64,000 nucleotides of DNA, from NCBI RefSeq assembly GCF_000384035.1, contig NZ_KB913024.1, positions 1,831,087 through 1,895,086 of the forward strand. Reading direction: 5' to 3'. Below the pieces are notes generated by a model that saw only the letters and a list, made by a program, of their open reading frames with translations, did no database searches and had not been told where the DNA came from. Source of the DNA: Actinopolyspora mortivallis DSM 44261 (GTDB lineage Bacteria; Actinomycetota; Actinomycetes; Mycobacteriales; Pseudonocardiaceae). Numbering within the stretch: position 1 is the first letter of the stretch; every line of letters starts with the position of its first letter. The position numbers and the translations under genes were made by a program. Shown in pieces: positions 3,575-10,925 of the stretch.

Positions 3575-4510
3575 TCAGAGGTGCTTGCGGTAGAACGGGA
3601 TCAGGTGTTCCAGCGCCTTGCTCGTGGCCTCGGGTTGGTCGTAGAGGTCGTAGTGCGATGCGCCGTCGACGACCACGAGCTCCTTGTCCTTGGAGGCCGC
3701 GCGCCCGTAGATCTCGAAACCGGCGCGGTAGGCGCCGAAGCTGCCCGGCCGGTCACCGACCACGACGCACATCGGCTGGGTGAGCAGTACCTCGGCCCGG
3801 TCGAAGGCGTCCCACCCGACCAGCGCCGCCTGCCGGGAGAACCGGAAGCTGGTCGCACCGTTTTCCGCGCGGCCGCGATCGGTCTTGTAGTAGTCGGTGG
3901 CCTCGCGCACGTCGATGTCCGTGACTCCCGCCTCCTCGGCAGCCTGGGGTGAGGGTGGCAGCAGGTCGTTGACCACCGCATCCTGTCCGCGTGCCTCGGC
4001 GGTGCGCTGGGCGGCGATGGTCTCCAGCGCACCCAGTGGGTCGTAGTTCACGAAGCCCTCGCGCATCATCCGGCCGACGTTGGCCGCGGTCACCGTGCCG
4101 AGTGCCTTGATCCGCCGCTCGGTCATCGCCGCGTTGATCGCATAACCGCCACTACCGCAGATGCCCAGCACGCCGATCCGGTTCTCGTCGACGTAGGGCT
4201 GGGTGACCAGGTAGTCGATCACGTAGCTGAAGTCCTGCACCCGAAAGGCCGGGTCCTCGGTGAGCCGCGGCTGGCCGCCGCTCTCGCCCTGGAAGCTCGC
4301 GTCGAAGGCGATCGCGACGAAACCCTGCTGGGCCAACGCGGTGGCGTAGACGTTGCCGGAGGTCTGCTCCTTGCAGCTGCCGGTGGGATGGGCGCTGATC
4401 ACCACGGGGTAGGTCCGGTTGCGGTCAAAACCCGGCGGGAAGTAAATGTCCGCCGCGATGTCCCAGGCCAGGGCCGTGATGTTCACGCGCTCGACGTTGT
4501 CGGAAGGCAT
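3575..4510 (-). CDS. alpha/beta hydrolase, YcjY/dienelactone-hydrolase-like
   Basis: A 311-residue cytoplasmic hydrolase with no signal peptide. The N-terminal strand region (ADIYFPPGF, YPVVISAHPTGSCKEQ) and the nucleophile elbow GICGSGGY near residue 120 match the YcjY-like group, where a Cys in GxC may serve as nucleophile as in dienelactone hydrolases; a C-terminal DGASHYDLYDQPEA supplies the likely catalytic His. The substrate cannot be read from the sequence. The ATG at 4510 has GAGGAG 8 bases upstream; a GTG nine bases earlier overlaps that site and was rejected. The downstream MmyB-type regulator probably controls this gene, a common pairing. Confidence 0.87.
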   Translation of the reverse strand: MPSDNVERVNITALAWDIAADIYFPPGFDRNRTYPVVISAHPTGSCKEQTSGNVYATALAQQGFVAIAFDASFQGESGGQPRLTEDPAFRVQDFSYVIDYLVTQPYVDENRIGVLGICGSGGYAINAAMTERRIKALGTVTAANVGRMMREGFVNYDPLGALETIAAQRTAEARGQDAVVNDLLPPSPQAAEEAGVTDIDVREATDYYKTDRGRAENGATSFRFSRQAALVGWDAFDRAEVLLTQPMCVVVGDRPGSFGAYRAGFEIYGRAASKDKELVVVDGASHYDLYDQPEATSKALEHLIPFYRKHL

Positions 4511-4794
4511 GGGCCTCACTCCTCATGTGTGCCGCATCGGTCCGGCGGAAGGGCCGTTGACCAGCGGCTTCGAGTCCGTACACCCCAAATGTAGGGCGGC
4601 ATGGACCCGTGCGGCAGGGACAGTTCCTTCCCAGGAAGCGGCTTGCCGCTGATCGTCGACGAATGACACACCTCGACCGCACCCGATGACACAGTCCTTA
4701 CCGACACCCCCATTGACTGTCACTCGCGCCGCACACGCGCACGCTATCGACTCACAGGCCAAGGGACCGCTCTACTCCGCCCCTCAGGACAGCT

Positions 4795-4941: not shown

Positions 4942-5300
4942 GTTCGGATCGTGCCGGTCAGCATCGATACCTCGCCGTGGCGCCTTTCGGGCGTGTCCGG
5001 TTCCTCCCCGAGCACGAGCGAGATCCCTACCCCCAGTGAGAGATCTCGCTCCTGCTCGGGCACGAAGGATGGCCACGTGCTGCCCGGCTACTTCGCAGCG
5101 ACCCCTTCGGCGGCAGCGGCCATCGTGGCATCACCGTGACGGAGTCCCGGGTCGTACTGCTACGTCCGCGTACCTCGGCAGCACGGGGGCGATGGAAACA
5201 GCCATCCCGGATTCTGTCAACAACCGTATTCAAACGGTACTACATGGATAGAGGTGTTGGCACCTCGGGTTCCAGGCCGGAAGGTTGGCGGGGCAGTCAC

Positions 5301-5942
5301 CTACGTCTGGGTGACCAGGACGGCGTACAAGCCGCCACCCACGGCGGCCCCTATGACCGCCCCCGCTGTGACCTGGGCCGATGTATGGTCATTGAGGACG
5401 ACCCGAGACCACCCGACTGCGGCGACCACCACCGCCGTCACCCAGAGCGCGGGAGAGTATGTCGCGGCGAGGATGATCACGGTGCCGCCGGCGACGGCCG
5501 TGTGCATGGAGATCTTCCAGAAGATCGTGATGAGTCCGCCAACCACCAGTGTCACGAGCATGCTGATGTCCAGTGCGATCAGTGGCCAGGGAGCGCTTGC
5601 GATGATCAGGGCGGCCACTCCGCCGAGGCTGGACACGATCAGCGTGAGGAAGGGGATCAGACGTCCTTCGCGGTTGCGGACGTGGTGGCCCTCCCACCGT
5701 TTGGTGCGAGCTCCCCAGACGATGACGCCCATCGGAATGATGCTGCTTGTCAGTGCGACGAGAAGTCCCCAGAGGACGGTAGGTATGGGCGCGTGCGTGG
5801 CCCGCCAGGCCACGGCCAGGGGCAGCATGAGCACGATCACCCATGGGGCGAACACTTCGGTGAGCACCCGAGCGAGAGGACGGGAGTTTTTGGGGGACGT
5901 GCTCGTCGAGGAGGTGACCGCGTTGAGGTCAGAGGCGTTCAT
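5301..5942 (-). CDS. PAP2-superfamily membrane phosphatase
   Basis: A 213-residue integral membrane protein with five to six hydrophobic segments. The PAP2 motifs are visible: a basic first motif region (TKRWEGHHVRNREGR), WKISMHTAVAGG with the central His, and GWSRVVLNDHTSAQV with the third-motif Arg and His. Family enzymes remove phosphate from lipid or isoprenoid pyrophosphates at the membrane. The ATG overlaps the end of the upstream 7-TM gene by 14 bases, with GGAG 9 bases before it, so the two are translated together. It is the last gene of the four-gene cassette; whether the phosphatase acts on a signal lipid or a general carrier is unknown. Confidence 0.85.
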   Translation of the reverse strand: MNASDLNAVTSSTSTSPKNSRPLARVLTEVFAPWVIVLMLPLAVAWRATHAPIPTVLWGLLVALTSSIIPMGVIVWGARTKRWEGHHVRNREGRLIPFLTLIVSSLGGVAALIIASAPWPLIALDISMLVTLVVGGLITIFWKISMHTAVAGGTVIILAATYSPALWVTAVVVAAVGWSRVVLNDHTSAQVTAGAVIGAAVGGGLYAVLVTQT

Positions 5943-7089
5943 GATTCTGGTCTCCGGCTAGAGGGCTGGCGTGGCGTAGGGCACGGGACACACGTGTTAA
6001 CCAGGCGAGGTCGTCCGGGTGCGTGTTTGGGGGGTCGGGAACGTTCGTTCTGGGAGACGCGCCGGAGTGCCAGGCGCGTACCGCCTCGAGGATCGCGGCT
6101 GCCTCGTGCGCGGCCTCGGGATCCGCACGACGAGTGGCCGGGGGGATGCTCTCTCGACTACGAGGCGTGCTGGGGCGGTAGGGAGCGAGCAGCAACAGCG
6201 CGTCGTGGAGATCCACGATCCGGCGTGTCAAGCGCCAGTCGAGAGGATGTGGTCGCTGGGAGGCAGCGCTGGGCAGGTGCGTGTGGCCGGCGAGTACGGG
6301 GGACAGCGTCTCCCACATCGGGGTCAGCACACGGTAGGCGTGGTAGTGCCGTACGCGCCGCACCGATGCCGTCAGTGCGGGTCCCCAGGAGGGCATGGTG
6401 GCTCCGATGGCGACCAGGGCCGCACACGGGGCGGCGGTGACGGTGGACACCGTGGACTCGAAGCCCAGTGTTCGCCCCGCCCGGAAAAAGACCGCGGTGG
6501 CCACCGTTGTTTTGCCCGCTGCCCAGGCGAGGCCGAAGACGGCACCGAGCTGGGTGATTCGCAGACCACGTCGCAGCCAGGGACGGTCGCTGAGGCGAAT
6601 GTAGCGATGGACGAGCCGCACGAAGGCGAGCAGGATCCAAGCGACGTAGCCGCAGAAGATCAGAATGTAACCCAGCACCGTGGGTTCGTCGGCGAAACGA
6701 GCGACGAAATCGGGATCGAAAGGGATGGGAGCCCGTATCAGGAGGAGGCTCATGACCACAAGGCTGAGGCCGAGCACGGCGGCTTGACGACGAACGGCCG
6801 TCTGCGCACGTGGGGGGTCGGTGACCAGGTGGACCAGCAACCCGTACACGCACCACGCGCCCACCATCCCGAAGGCGTTGGCCAGCAGGCGGGTGGCGTT
6901 GGGGAACGGTTCGACCGGTGCCGTGAGCATCAGTGTGTGGGGGGACGAGAGGAGGGCGGAAAGCCCCACACTGGCGATGGCCCCGGAGAGATGGATAACC
7001 CCGGGGGTGCGGTGGGTGGCACGGTGGTAGCGGACACCTGCCGCGATCAGCGCGAGGAGCCCGGTGCTCCACATCAGTAGACTGGCCAT
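5929..7089 (-). CDS. 7-TM membrane protein, MAB_1171c/DUF6545 type
   Basis: A 386-residue protein with about seven membrane segments in residues 1-235 (for example LLMWSTGLLALIAAGVRY, LGLSLVVMSLLLI, YILIFCGYVAWILLAFVRL) and a soluble C-terminal tail of about 150 residues rich in Arg, Pro and His. The layout matches the actinobacterial MAB_1171c family, annotated as a putative transporter without biochemical proof; the receptor-like 7-TM-plus-tail shape would also fit sensing. The ATG at 7089 follows the stop of the ImmA/IrrE gene by 14 bases and the end overlaps the PAP2 gene. A GTG three bases earlier is an alternative start. Confidence 0.8.
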   Translation of the reverse strand: MASLLMWSTGLLALIAAGVRYHRATHRTPGVIHLSGAIASVGLSALLSSPHTLMLTAPVEPFPNATRLLANAFGMVGAWCVYGLLVHLVTDPPRAQTAVRRQAAVLGLSLVVMSLLLIRAPIPFDPDFVARFADEPTVLGYILIFCGYVAWILLAFVRLVHRYIRLSDRPWLRRGLRITQLGAVFGLAWAAGKTTVATAVFFRAGRTLGFESTVSTVTAAPCAALVAIGATMPSWGPALTASVRRVRHYHAYRVLTPMWETLSPVLAGHTHLPSAASQRPHPLDWRLTRRIVDLHDALLLLAPYRPSTPRSRESIPPATRRADPEAAHEAAAILEAVRAWHSGASPRTNVPDPPNTHPDDLAWLTRVSRALRHASPLAGDQNHERL

Positions 7090-7103
7090 CACGGTTTCGG
7101 GGG

Positions 7104-7637
7104 TCAGGGTTGGTCGAATGCCGAGGTCAACCTGGTCAGAGTGGCGGCGGTCGAAGCATCCAGTCGCTGAGTGGTCCGTCGATGACGGCGGCGTGGCTGA
7201 CGTGAGACCCGAGCCAGGATCATCGTGGCGATGGTTTCGGCCTCGTGTTCCTCGGCGGCGGCGCTGACGCGGTCAAGGAGATGCGCGAAGGCGGCCGGCG
7301 CCAGACTCGGTGCACGTTGTTGGGCCTCCTGAGCGGACAGCACACAGCGGCCACGGTGGTTCGAGATCACGTGGCCGATCTCGTGCAGGATGATGTGGTC
7401 CTGGTGTACGGCGGTGGTGTTCTCGGCATAGCCGATGACGTCGTAGTTCTCACGGCGCTGCCAGGCTCCGGTGCTGTCACCGAGGGTCCAGGGCACGGCC
7501 ACCAGGTCGATCTCGCGGTCGCGGTGCTCTTCCAGCCTGTCGAGAAAGTCGTCGATGTCCCACGGATGCGGAATCATTCCCAGCAGGGGTTCGACGCGGG
7601 AGGCAACAGTGGAGCGCGGATCGGTCTCGGCAGTCAC
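7104..7637 (-). CDS. ImmA/IrrE-family metallopeptidase
   Basis: A 177-residue protein with the zinc-protease motif HEIGH at about residues 85-89, followed by a downstream acidic stretch EEHEAETIA that can supply the third ligand. In phages and in Deinococcus such proteases (ImmA, IrrE/PprI) cut a partner XRE repressor; here the partner would be the EspR-like gene just upstream. The GTG at 7637 was picked because GAGAGG lies 5 bases upstream and because homologous family members start close to the PHPWDIDDF segment; the frame is open to ATG codons at 7727 and 7751, so a longer N-terminus is possible. It belongs to the four-gene minus-strand cassette. Confidence 0.85.
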   Translation of the reverse strand: MTAETDPRSTVASRVEPLLGMIPHPWDIDDFLDRLEEHRDREIDLVAVPWTLGDSTGAWQRRENYDVIGYAENTTAVHQDHIILHEIGHVISNHRGRCVLSAQEAQQRAPSLAPAAFAHLLDRVSAAAEEHEAETIATMILARVSRQPRRRHRRTTQRLDASTAATLTRLTSAFDQP

Positions 7638-7731
7638 GCTTTCCTCTCGTGCTTCCTCAGCCCCGGTGAGGGACCTCAGCCGTAAACACCGGGGAACAGC
7701 CTCCGAACAGGTGTTTTCGGAGGGCATCGTC

Positions 7732-8196
7732 TCACCCGTCTTCCCTGTCATCGGTGACCCGCTTGCGTCGGCCTCTGCGGGCACGGTCCTTCCGTTCGTG
7801 GTTGGCGAGATGGTTCACCATCTCGGAGACCGCGTTGCGGTGTTCCGGGCTCAGCGTGTTGATGCGCTGGACGATTTCCCGTGCTTCGGTGTCGCGCCAC
7901 TGGATCACGTCACTGATCTCGGCATCGACCTGCCGAGTCACCTCGTCGTCGAAGAAGTACGCTGGTGGGACGCCGAAGAAGGACGCCAGGGCCTCGACGT
8001 AGTGCATACGGGGATTCGACTGCTTGCCCGCAGCCAGCTGCTGGATGTAGGCCGCCGTCATCGCACCCCGATGCTCTTTGATCCCGGCTGCGATCTCCCG
8101 GTACGAGTATCTCCCCCGGTCGGGTGGGTGTACCGTTTCGATCAGATGGGCCAGTTTGGCGGCAAACGTTTGTTTGTGCCGCTCGGAGTCGGTCAT
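7732..8196 (-). CDS. EspR-like XRE-family regulator
   Basis: A 154-residue DNA-binding protein resembling mycobacterial EspR: FAAKLAHLIETVHPPDRGRY, an extended helix-turn-helix with GAMTAAYIQQLAAGKQSNP, then LASFFGVPPAYFFDD, and a C-terminal helical part (QWRDTEAREIVQRINTLS) that in EspR mediates dimer formation. The C-terminus is very basic (RKDRARRGRRKR). AGGAGG lies 5 bases before the ATG at 8196, a strong site, so this is the first gene of the cassette. The neighbouring ImmA/IrrE protease may inactivate it; this is inference from family precedent. Confidence 0.88.
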   Translation of the reverse strand: MTDSERHKQTFAAKLAHLIETVHPPDRGRYSYREIAAGIKEHRGAMTAAYIQQLAAGKQSNPRMHYVEALASFFGVPPAYFFDDEVTRQVDAEISDVIQWRDTEAREIVQRINTLSPEHRNAVSEMVNHLANHERKDRARRGRRKRVTDDREDG

Positions 8197-8430
8197 GGCA
8201 GCCTCCTGGCCCTCACGCGGAGCGTCAACAGTCTTCCTCCACACATACCACGCGCATATGCGTATTGACAGGCCTCAGGGTGCGGGGATGCGGGACCGAG
8301 CGCTGCCCCGGTGTCCTCCGACTCTCGGCGCTGCGGGGGCGACGGGGATGTCCGACGATGGTGGGCGGGCAGCAGTGGTCCCGCCGGGCGGCGCTGTTCA
8401 CGGCGGGCTCCGACGAGGGAGGCAGCAGCC

Positions 8431-10304: not shown

Positions 10305-10925
10305 GTGTTCCCCTCCCCGGAGAGGATCTCGGGCGGGTGCCTTCCGTCCCGCGCGTTTTTCGTGTCCGTACCGGAATGTCAGCGTGTTGCACGTGTGTGC
10401 GGAAGTCAAGTGGGCCTGGCGAGGCTGGTTCACTTCCGTTTTCGCCACCCCGATGATCGTTCTCACCCGCAGTGACAATCATTTTGCTCGATCGTGTGTT
10501 GACACCGTTCCCGTCGAATTAGAGGAGATCATCCTCCCTGGTGAGGGCCACTATTCGCGATGATGTCGAAAGACGATCCCCTGTTTTCACCTCTTCGAGT
10601 GAGGTGGTTCTCGTCGGGAGAGGCAGCTCGAACGAGCCAATGTGAAATCTTTGCCGATTTATTCGGGACAGCGCGAAAGGATCGCGCCCCGTACACTGTT
10701 TCGTGCCGATACGGAAAAACCGTTCCCCCGCACGATCGGTTTTTCGCCACCGAGACGAGCCGAACGGTTCCGCCCACGGCGATCCGGGCATCCCGCTCGG
10801 GCGAAGGACCGACCGACGGCGAACCGGCGCCGGAACCAGGGGAGGGAGGAGGCCGTGGAACATCGCCCCGCGCCCCGTTGTGGGGATCCCGACCACGCTC
10901 GTTGCCGTACGGAAAGGACCCGGCG
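10305..10925. other. 621 bp intergenic region, divergent promoters only
   Basis: The region separates the minus-strand membrane pair from murT. Open frames in it have no family signature. It has a TTGACA box at 10499-10504 and a small inverted repeat at 10588-10606 (CACCTC, 7-base loop, GAGGTG). Base composition is less GC-rich in 10470-10700, consistent with a long 5' untranslated or regulatory region before murT. Confidence 0.45.

What the first reader, a model, noticed from the sequence alone, without database searches (positions are those of the whole stretch)
5301..8196. Four-gene cassette: EspR-like regulator, ImmA/IrrE protease, 7-TM protein, PAP2 phosphatase
Four overlapping or tightly spaced minus-strand genes combine a DNA-binding regulator, a protease that in phage and stress systems cuts such regulators, a receptor- or transporter-shaped membrane protein with a soluble tail, and a membrane lipid phosphatase. 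The protein families are known (EspR, ImmA/IrrE, MAB_1171c/DUF6545, PAP2); the combined function is, as far as I know, not described. A working idea: a membrane-perceived signal activates the protease, which removes the regulator, with the phosphatase making or destroying a lipid signal. It could equally be a defence or cell-communication module.
Basis: partly seen in the sequence, partly recalled or inferred. Interest (0 to 1): 0.72.

Follow-up and report, generated by a model that had tools for sequence, protein, structure and literature searches.

The report
Receptor-protease-repressor cassette with swappable enzyme
In a salt-loving soil bacterium, four neighbouring genes encode what looks like a membrane receptor, a protein-cutting enzyme, a gene repressor and a lipid phosphatase; the first three travel together through many bacteria, which suggests an undescribed way to turn an outside signal into gene expression.

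The parts
7732..8196 (-). EspR-type helix-turn-helix regulator, 154 aa (predicted autorepressor and protease substrate)
   Evidence: phmmer to PDB EspR 3r1f E 1.3e-20, residues 8-134; family profile E 3.2e-45; AGGAGG-N5-ATG
7104..7727 (-). M78 (IrrE/ImmA/CapP-type) zinc metalloprotease, 207 aa from ATG 7727 or 177 aa from GTG 7637
7371..7385 (-). HEIGH zinc-binding/catalytic motif of the protease
   Evidence: alignment A2 columns H93 E94 H97
5929..7092 (-). MAB_1171c-family membrane protein, 387 aa
   Evidence: NF042915 E 3.9e-52, 177.5 bits; model pLDDT 91.3
6382..7092 (-). seven-helix membrane part (residues 1-237), GPCR-like arrangement
5971..6357 (-). cytoplasmic DUF6545 domain
   Evidence: PF20182 66.3 bits, residues 246-374; matched by 92 of 93 aligned members
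5301..5942 (-). PAP2-superfamily phosphatase, 213 aa, five hydrophobic segments found; the variable fourth gene
   Evidence: 29 of 29 alignment members match PAP2; SMH and WSRx5HTxxQ present; hydropathy
8265..8270 (-). operator-like half-site TGTCAA upstream of the regulator gene
8224..8229 (-). second, inverted half-site GTTGAC, 41 bp from the first
7861..7872 (-). regulator residues 109-112 (V-Q-R-I; commonest residues A-L-R-A), near-invariant Arg111, candidate cleavage region (inference)
   Evidence: Arg in 59 of 60 rows; compare DdrO E-L-R-G loop, PMC10904395 passages

Best explanation
A one-way membrane switch. The EspR-type regulator binds half-sites before its own gene and represses the operon. 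The MAB_1171c protein is a seven-helix receptor, N-outside; when its variable membrane/outer half perceives a small, probably lipid-like molecule, its conserved cytoplasmic DUF6545 domain activates or releases the soluble M78 protease encoded just upstream. The protease cuts the regulator in its C-terminal dimerisation region, and the operon and other targets are switched on. The fourth enzyme (here a PAP2 phosphatase, elsewhere P450, monooxygenase, amidohydrolase and others) makes, matures or destroys the molecule sensed. Shown here: gene content, conservation, predicted active sites, fold and topology models, site enrichment, natural fusions. Inferred: repression, receptor role, protease gating, cleavage of the regulator, and the enzyme's link to the signal.
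For: Linkage in 61 genomes: 110 of 116 M78 hits have MAB_1171c within 500 bp downstream, 111 of 127 MAB_1171c hits have M78 upstream, 86 of 107 EspR-family hits lie within 1.5 kb of one of them. Own genome 3 of 3. Named loci found by MAB_1171c similarity alone: 30 of 31 with M78, 27 of 31 with regulator, 22 of 31 with PAP2 (9 same strand, 5 fused, 8 convergent), 18 of 31 with all four. Natural fusion of protease and DUF6545 domain, without the seven helices, in one 409-codon frame in L038, with an EspR-type gene convergent. PAP2-MAB_1171c fusions in two clades. Active-site residues in 76 of 76 aligned proteases; fold of IrrE, PprI and CapP, which cut HTH repressors (PMC10904395 and PMC13373217 passages). 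The protease here has no room for PprI's C-terminal sensor domain, so the sensor should lie elsewhere; MAB_1171c fits (inference). GPCR-like shape, N-out/C-in, and every column conserved at 75% or more at residue 173 or later. Site: GTCAACT/AGTTGAC upstream of 16 of 59 regulators against 10 of 558 control genes, p 1.7e-11, best of 738 words; against 4 of 227 promoter-like controls p 4.4e-9. Fourth gene an enzyme in 11 of 13 same-strand non-PAP2 cases scanned, of 21, and in 8 of 8 annotated plasmid loci, PAP2 included. PAP2 label follows the MAB_1171c tree: 8 changes against 31.2 shuffled, 0 of 500 as low.
Against: No biochemistry. 16 of 127 MAB_1171c hits lack the protease; some are fragments or near contig ends, but in L043/L208 (Gandjariella) regulator and receptor-PAP2 fusion have no protease between them. 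In several Actinopolyspora no regulator was found at the protease-receptor locus, and one sits with another PAP2 copy elsewhere. The protease-DUF6545 fusion lacks the seven helices, so the inner domain can work without them. The window's half-site is TGTCAAT, not the family's TGTCAACTG, and the inverted pair at 36-48 bp is in only 4 of 59. GPCR matches have Foldseek E of 0.013 at best and TM mostly 0.3-0.42 by query length, and helical bundles score high easily. In the class/phylum sample only 10 of 48 MAB_1171c loci had this PAP2, 39 of 48 the protease and 24 of 48 the regulator with the first profiles and 1.5-kb flanks.
Confidence: 0.53

Rival explanations
1. MAB_1171c is an exporter or importer (NCBI: 'putative transporter') and the regulator-protease pair controls its expression; PAP2 and the other enzymes act on the transported compound.
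For: NCBI family name; an M. abscessus MAB_1171c knock-out lost about 50% of biofilm mass and its authors group it with transport (PMC8707978 passages).
Against: GPCR-like seven-helix arrangement; conservation concentrated in the inner half; DUF6545 matched by 92 of 93 members and no transporter family by more than one; protease-DUF6545 fusion.
Confidence: 0.16
2. A CapH/CapP-like DNA-damage switch: the protease senses single-stranded DNA and cuts the regulator; the membrane protein and enzyme are the effectors, possibly in phage defence.
Against: Protease is short and the match covers only the N-terminal half of CapP/PprI; none of the four proteins matches a defence effector; partners are small-molecule enzymes.
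Confidence: 0.1
3. A toxin-antitoxin pair with passenger genes, as some NCBI records imply by naming the protease 'toxin'.
For: Product name 'toxin' in 4 of 8 annotated plasmid loci; Xre-COG2856 pairs were predicted as such in 2009 (PMC2701414 passages); presence on plasmids and in an island.
Against: The same paper notes that ImmA is required for proteolytic inactivation of ImmR; the tightest partner is the membrane protein (110 of 116), not the regulator.
Confidence: 0.06
4. Only regulator, protease and receptor form the system; PAP2 is a general lipid phosphatase that gains from co-expression.
For: PAP2 absent from most loci of the wide sample; window-PAP2 relatives in 163 of 249 family genomes, and 8 of the 30 closest loci examined had no MAB_1171c within 1.5 kb.
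Against: Fusions in two clades and clustering on the tree; 22 of the 30 closest PAP2 relatives lie within 1.5 kb of MAB_1171c.
Confidence: 0.15

Closest known systems
PprI(IrrE)-DdrO of Deinococcus
   Different: No membrane receptor; [quoted passage not shown]
CapP-CapH controllers of CBASS and other immune operons
   Same: Protease plus HTH repressor; capH profile matches 43 of 60 regulators
   Different: CapP is activated by ssDNA (PMC13373217 passages); here a seven-helix protein and a metabolic enzyme follow
ImmA-ImmR of ICEBs1
   Same: Protease needed for proteolytic inactivation of an Xre repressor (PMC2701414 passages)
   Different: No conserved membrane partner or enzyme known to me (recalled)
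BlaR1-BlaI / MecR1-MecI (recalled)
   Same: Membrane sensor leads to zinc-protease removal of an operon's own repressor
EspR of mycobacteria
   Same: The regulator is a full-length EspR homologue; EspR binds its own promoter at two flanking sites and can loop DNA (PMC3315491 passages)
   Different: No link to a protease in the passages seen; reported motif TTTGC[TC][GA] differs from TGTCAACTG
NCBI family MAB_1171c (NF042915)
   Same: Member, 177.5 bits
   Different: Named a putative transporter; fold and linkage point to a receptor

Membership tests
EspR family | full-length similarity including C-terminal dimerisation domain | tested here: met
   E 1.3e-20, residues 8-134; profile E 3.2e-45
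EspR family | autoregulation through two sites flanking the promoter | tested here: inconclusive
   two inverted half-sites 41 bp apart in the window; such pairs in 4 of 59 against 0 of 227 controls, range chosen after seeing the window
EspR family | dimer-of-dimers DNA looping | not testable with these tools
   needs protein
Peptidase M78 | HExxH plus downstream Glu | tested here: met
   invariant in 76 of 76 rows
Peptidase M78 | IrrE-type fold | tested here: met
Peptidase M78 | Pfam score over the gathering cut-off | tested here: inconclusive
   window 20.5 bits against 22; 20 of 76 members match at E 0.001 or better
Peptidase M78 | cleaves an HTH repressor | not testable with these tools
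   experiment needed
MAB_1171c (NF042915) | score over cut-off | tested here: met
   177.5 against 100 bits
PAP2 superfamily | catalytic His motifs 2 and 3 | tested here: met
   SMH and SRx5H present in the window; motif-2 His replaced in one of 29 rows, L161
PAP2 superfamily | motif 1 KxxxxxxRP (recalled) | tested here: inconclusive
   Hx6R without Pro in the window
PAP2 superfamily | Pfam cut-off | tested here: inconclusive
   26.3 against 27.2; 29 of 29 relatives match at E 0.01 or better
G-protein-coupled receptors | seven helices, N-out | tested here: met
G-protein-coupled receptors | overall fold | tested here: inconclusive
G-protein-coupled receptors | G-protein coupling, common descent | not tested
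   similarity of shape only; not filed as a member
CapH/CapP | protease with the C-terminal part of CapP | tested here: not met
   177-207 aa here against a 278-residue chain 7t5t; match covers its residues 6-147
CapH/CapP | adjacent immune operon | tested here: inconclusive
   PADLOC finds no effector among the four proteins; wider flanks were not scanned with PADLOC
Type II toxin-antitoxin | toxic protein neutralised by partner | not testable with these tools
   experiment needed

The most novel reading that the evidence does not exclude
A bacterial receptor system in which a GPCR-shaped seven-helix protein, rather than a kinase or sigma-factor route, gates a metalloprotease that destroys a repressor; each copy carries its own signal-making or signal-altering enzyme, so the family is a set of separate chemical languages that spread on plasmids and islands. 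EspR, the mycobacterial regulator, is an offshoot: many mycobacteria still encode the protease and receptor next to espR, others have espR without the pair.
Probability: 0.31. Interest if true: 0.92.

Novelty: new variant of a known kind. Interest (0 to 1): 0.75.

Why it matters
It would add a receptor-protease-repressor route to bacterial signalling, with a membrane protein shaped like the receptors of animal cells; give a job to the DUF6545/MAB_1171c family (0 papers for DUF6545, 1 for MAB_1171c in the library searched); and point to chemical signals of antibiotic-producing actinomycetes, since partner enzymes include P450s and monooxygenases. It also makes a question about EspR directly testable: whether its level is, or once was, set by regulated proteolysis.

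Tried and rejected
Defence module: PADLOC gave no effector among the four proteins; tblastn of MAB_1171c against the phage collection gave no match. Perfect palindrome CGCATATGCG in the window promoter as operator: before 1 of 59 regulators and 2 of 558 controls, rejected. Operator in the Actinopolyspora protease-receptor loci that lack a local regulator: no TGTCAAC or CTGTCAA upstream of the protease in L040-L042, so control in trans by a distant regulator has no site support. Cassette as cargo of the neighbouring Tn3-family transposon: rejected, it lies outside the 39-bp repeats. Microbial rhodopsins and other seven-helix families are not among the 50 rows shown; that excludes nothing. A first statement of mine that no protease fusion exists was wrong: one search saw only part of the loci; one search found the protease-DUF6545 fusion in L038. 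Equal open-frame lengths and 62 further hint at regulator-protease fusions in four genomes (G017, G028 contig C4, G034, G036); their sequence was not fetched. The fusion in L038 is why I raised the best explanation from 0.50 to 0.53 and the novel case from 0.30 to 0.31.

Limits: the protease and receptor profiles were trained on neighbouring genes, so their reciprocity shows a specific subfamily; the genome-wide searches used no position. In one search I used all 127 listed receptor rows; 116 protease rows (12 listed rows weaker than 1e-8 dropped); 107 regulator rows (9 second matches close to another regulator match dropped, and all rows weaker than about 7e-10; that table was itself cut). 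Receptor, protease and regulator alignments are non-redundant selections: 93 of 138, 76 of 100 and 60 of 80. In one search the spacing range was chosen after seeing the window. Downstream genes scanned: 13 of 21 same-strand and 7 of 31 convergent ones. Plasmid places opened: 10 of 11 records, 8 of them with annotation.
Full report

ARE THEY A UNIT. I searched 61 genomes (own plus 60 relatives) with profiles of regulator, receptor and protease, with no condition on position, and then compared places. Of 127 receptor hits 111 have the protease directly upstream on the same strand; of 116 protease hits 110 have the receptor directly downstream; of 107 regulator hits 86 lie within 1.5 kb of either, 74 of them on the strand of the protease and 11 only on the opposite strand. 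In the window's own genome the regulator profile finds three matches in all, each beside one of the three receptors. A scan of named genomes by receptor similarity alone gave 31 loci: 30 with protease, 27 with regulator, 22 with PAP2, 18 with all four. These include metagenome-assembled genomes labelled Chloroflexi and Proteobacteria, whose labels may be wrong. In a class sample 68 of 296 genomes have the receptor, 45 over the family cut-off; in a phylum sample 18 of 197, 7 over it. Several genomes have more than one copy. In 48 receptor loci from these two samples, 39 had the protease, 24 the regulator and 10 this PAP2 with the first profiles and 1.5-kb flanks.

FUSIONS. In L038 (a Pseudonocardiaceae-family relative, G031) the protease, with its HExxH intact, and the DUF6545 domain (profile positions 242-381, that is without the seven helices) share one 409-codon open frame, with an EspR-type gene convergent. 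Receptor and PAP2 share one frame in Actinopolyspora relatives and Gandjariella and, in another part of the tree, in two Chloroflexi assemblies. Fused partners usually act together (inference).

THE FOURTH GENE. Among the 30 closest relatives of the window PAP2 with 1.5-kb flanks, 22 have the receptor near by, on the same strand, convergent, or in the same open frame. Where PAP2 is absent the next same-strand gene is usually another enzyme: of 13 scanned, 2 cytochrome P450, 4 FAD-binding monooxygenase-like, 2 amidohydrolase, 1 amidase, 1 methyltransferase, 1 UDP-galactopyranose mutase, and 2 without a family. In 8 annotated plasmid loci it is P450 (3), FAD-dependent monooxygenase (2), PAP2 (2, one annotated, one by my profile) and polysaccharide deacetylase (1). 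The mobilizable plasmid of Amycolatopsis sp. AA4 carries the window's order, its fourth gene annotated PAP2. On a receptor tree of 119 rows the PAP2 label (36 rows) needs 8 changes, against 31.2 on average for shuffled labels; the window falls in a group of 20 rows, 19 with PAP2. The few other labelled enzymes do not cluster there (12 rows, 12 changes). Receptor lineage and PAP2 thus go together, as expected if the enzyme shapes what the receptor senses (inference).

THE OPERATOR. Words upstream of 59 non-redundant regulators were compared with 558 other genes of the same loci: GTCAACT/AGTTGAC in 16 against 10, p 1.7e-11, the best of 738 words; against 227 genes with free upstream space 16 against 4, p 4.4e-9. 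The listed sites mostly read TGTCAAC or GTCAAC in the gene's direction, some 40-130 bp before the aligned start. The window has TGTCAA and, 41 bp on, GTTGAC. Pairs of inverted half-sites 36-48 bp apart occur in 4 of 59 regulators and 0 of 227 controls, p 0.0017; the range was chosen after seeing the window. For EspR itself two sites flanking its promoter, and DNA looping, are reported (PMC3315491, passages), with a different consensus.

CUT SITE (inference). In the regulator alignment Arg111 is kept in 59 of 60 rows, the commonest residues around it being A-L-R-A, in the C-terminal part. In DdrO the cleavage loop holds E-L-R-G and its Arg was needed for cleavage with ssDNA (PMC10904395, passages).

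MYCOBACTERIA. In a Mycobacterium-type genus the regulator beside the pair is the EspR orthologue itself (E 1e-67 to solved EspR). EspR is in 117 of 118 genomes searched. Of 50 espR loci examined, the 30 closest to the query all have receptor and protease convergent to espR, and of 20 spread lower in the ranking 7 have them and 13 do not; the ranking is not a random sample, so 37 of 50 is not a frequency. From the receptor side, 10 of 17 loci fetched (L236-L252) show protease-receptor><EspR orthologue; the other 7 have other regulators or none (some genomes are in both sets). The gap between the convergent genes is 2-151 bp, median 65, in 48 loci. In 4 loci without the pair that I looked at, espR is followed by a gene of about 219 aa. 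In M. abscessus a MAB_1171c knock-out lost about half of its biofilm mass (PMC8707978, passages).

MOBILITY. In 8 of the 9 genus relatives with the VOC gene (the 8 that I fetched), the genes left of the island (molybdopterin oxidoreductase block, with an acetyltransferase gene in 3 of 8) lie next to the VOC gene that follows the cassette; in this genome about 13.9 kb separates them and holds the cassette and a Tn3-family transposon with perfect 39-bp inverted repeats. The cassette lies to the right of the transposon. Related cassettes are on 11 plasmid records.

PRINT. Searches for MAB_1171c (1 paper), DUF6545 (0) and combinations of EspR, ImmA, IrrE, M78, CapP/CapH, PAP2, Streptomyces and seven transmembrane gave listings (titles and abstract beginnings), capped at 8 to 25 rows; apart from them I saw passages of PMC8707978, PMC2701414, PMC10904395 (also abstract and outline), PMC3315491 and PMC13373217. 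No title or abstract beginning shown describes this cassette. The library lacks most subscription papers. I read no paper whole.

VERDICT. The most likely mechanism is receptor-gated proteolysis of an EspR-type repressor with a partner enzyme for the signal, at about one in two. The parts are known kinds; the assembly appears undescribed in what I searched.

Noticed in passing
window ~1-2256 and L264:3783-8443: Tn3-family transposon with perfect 39-bp inverted repeats, resolvase at L264:4069-4659, and a transposase that seems to read in three open frames (window up to 499, 521-1858, 1786-2178; only the last matches a family, DUF4158) and looks broken.
   Followed up: partly
L264:890-951 and 10836-10897 (window about 4649-4710): 62-nt inverted repeat, 84% complementary, 9.9 kb apart; a frame at L264:934-1329 looks like a tyrosine-recombinase end (my reading of the sequence, no family search). 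Meaning unknown.
   Followed up: no
L236-L245, L265-L294, L297-L302, L307: EspR orthologue of mycobacteria convergent with an M78 protease and a MAB_1171c-like protein; other mycobacteria have espR without the pair.
   Followed up: partly
L038:1471-2697 (-): M78 protease and DUF6545 domain in one open frame without the seven helices, EspR-type gene convergent at 583-1071.
   Followed up: partly
G017:C1:344372-345349, G028:C4:1151340-1152251, G034:C1:226972-227889, G036:C1:8435584-8436510: Regulator and protease matches report the same open-frame length, which hints at regulator-protease fusions; sequences not fetched.
   Followed up: no
L162, L179, L253, L254 (several Actinopolyspora): Regulator and a PAP2 gene paired without protease or receptor, with half-sites 42-43 bp apart upstream, while protease-receptor genes lie elsewhere in the same genome.
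   Followed up: partly
window 3575-4519: Alpha/beta hydrolase with partial similarity to UilS quorum-quenching lactonase (71 bits, cut-off 400), downstream of the cassette on the same strand.
   Followed up: no
window 5214-5221: A further CTGTCAAC half-site about 80 bp beyond the PAP2 stop codon; could be chance.
   Followed up: no
G019:C22:65745-66410, G019:C44:30019-30612, G028:C3:236891-237496, G016:C51:141054-141695: Some regulator frames hold two EspR-type matches in tandem.
   Followed up: no
plasmid records H1, H6, H9, H11: NCBI annotation calls the protease of this cassette 'toxin', which is probably misleading.
   Followed up: yes
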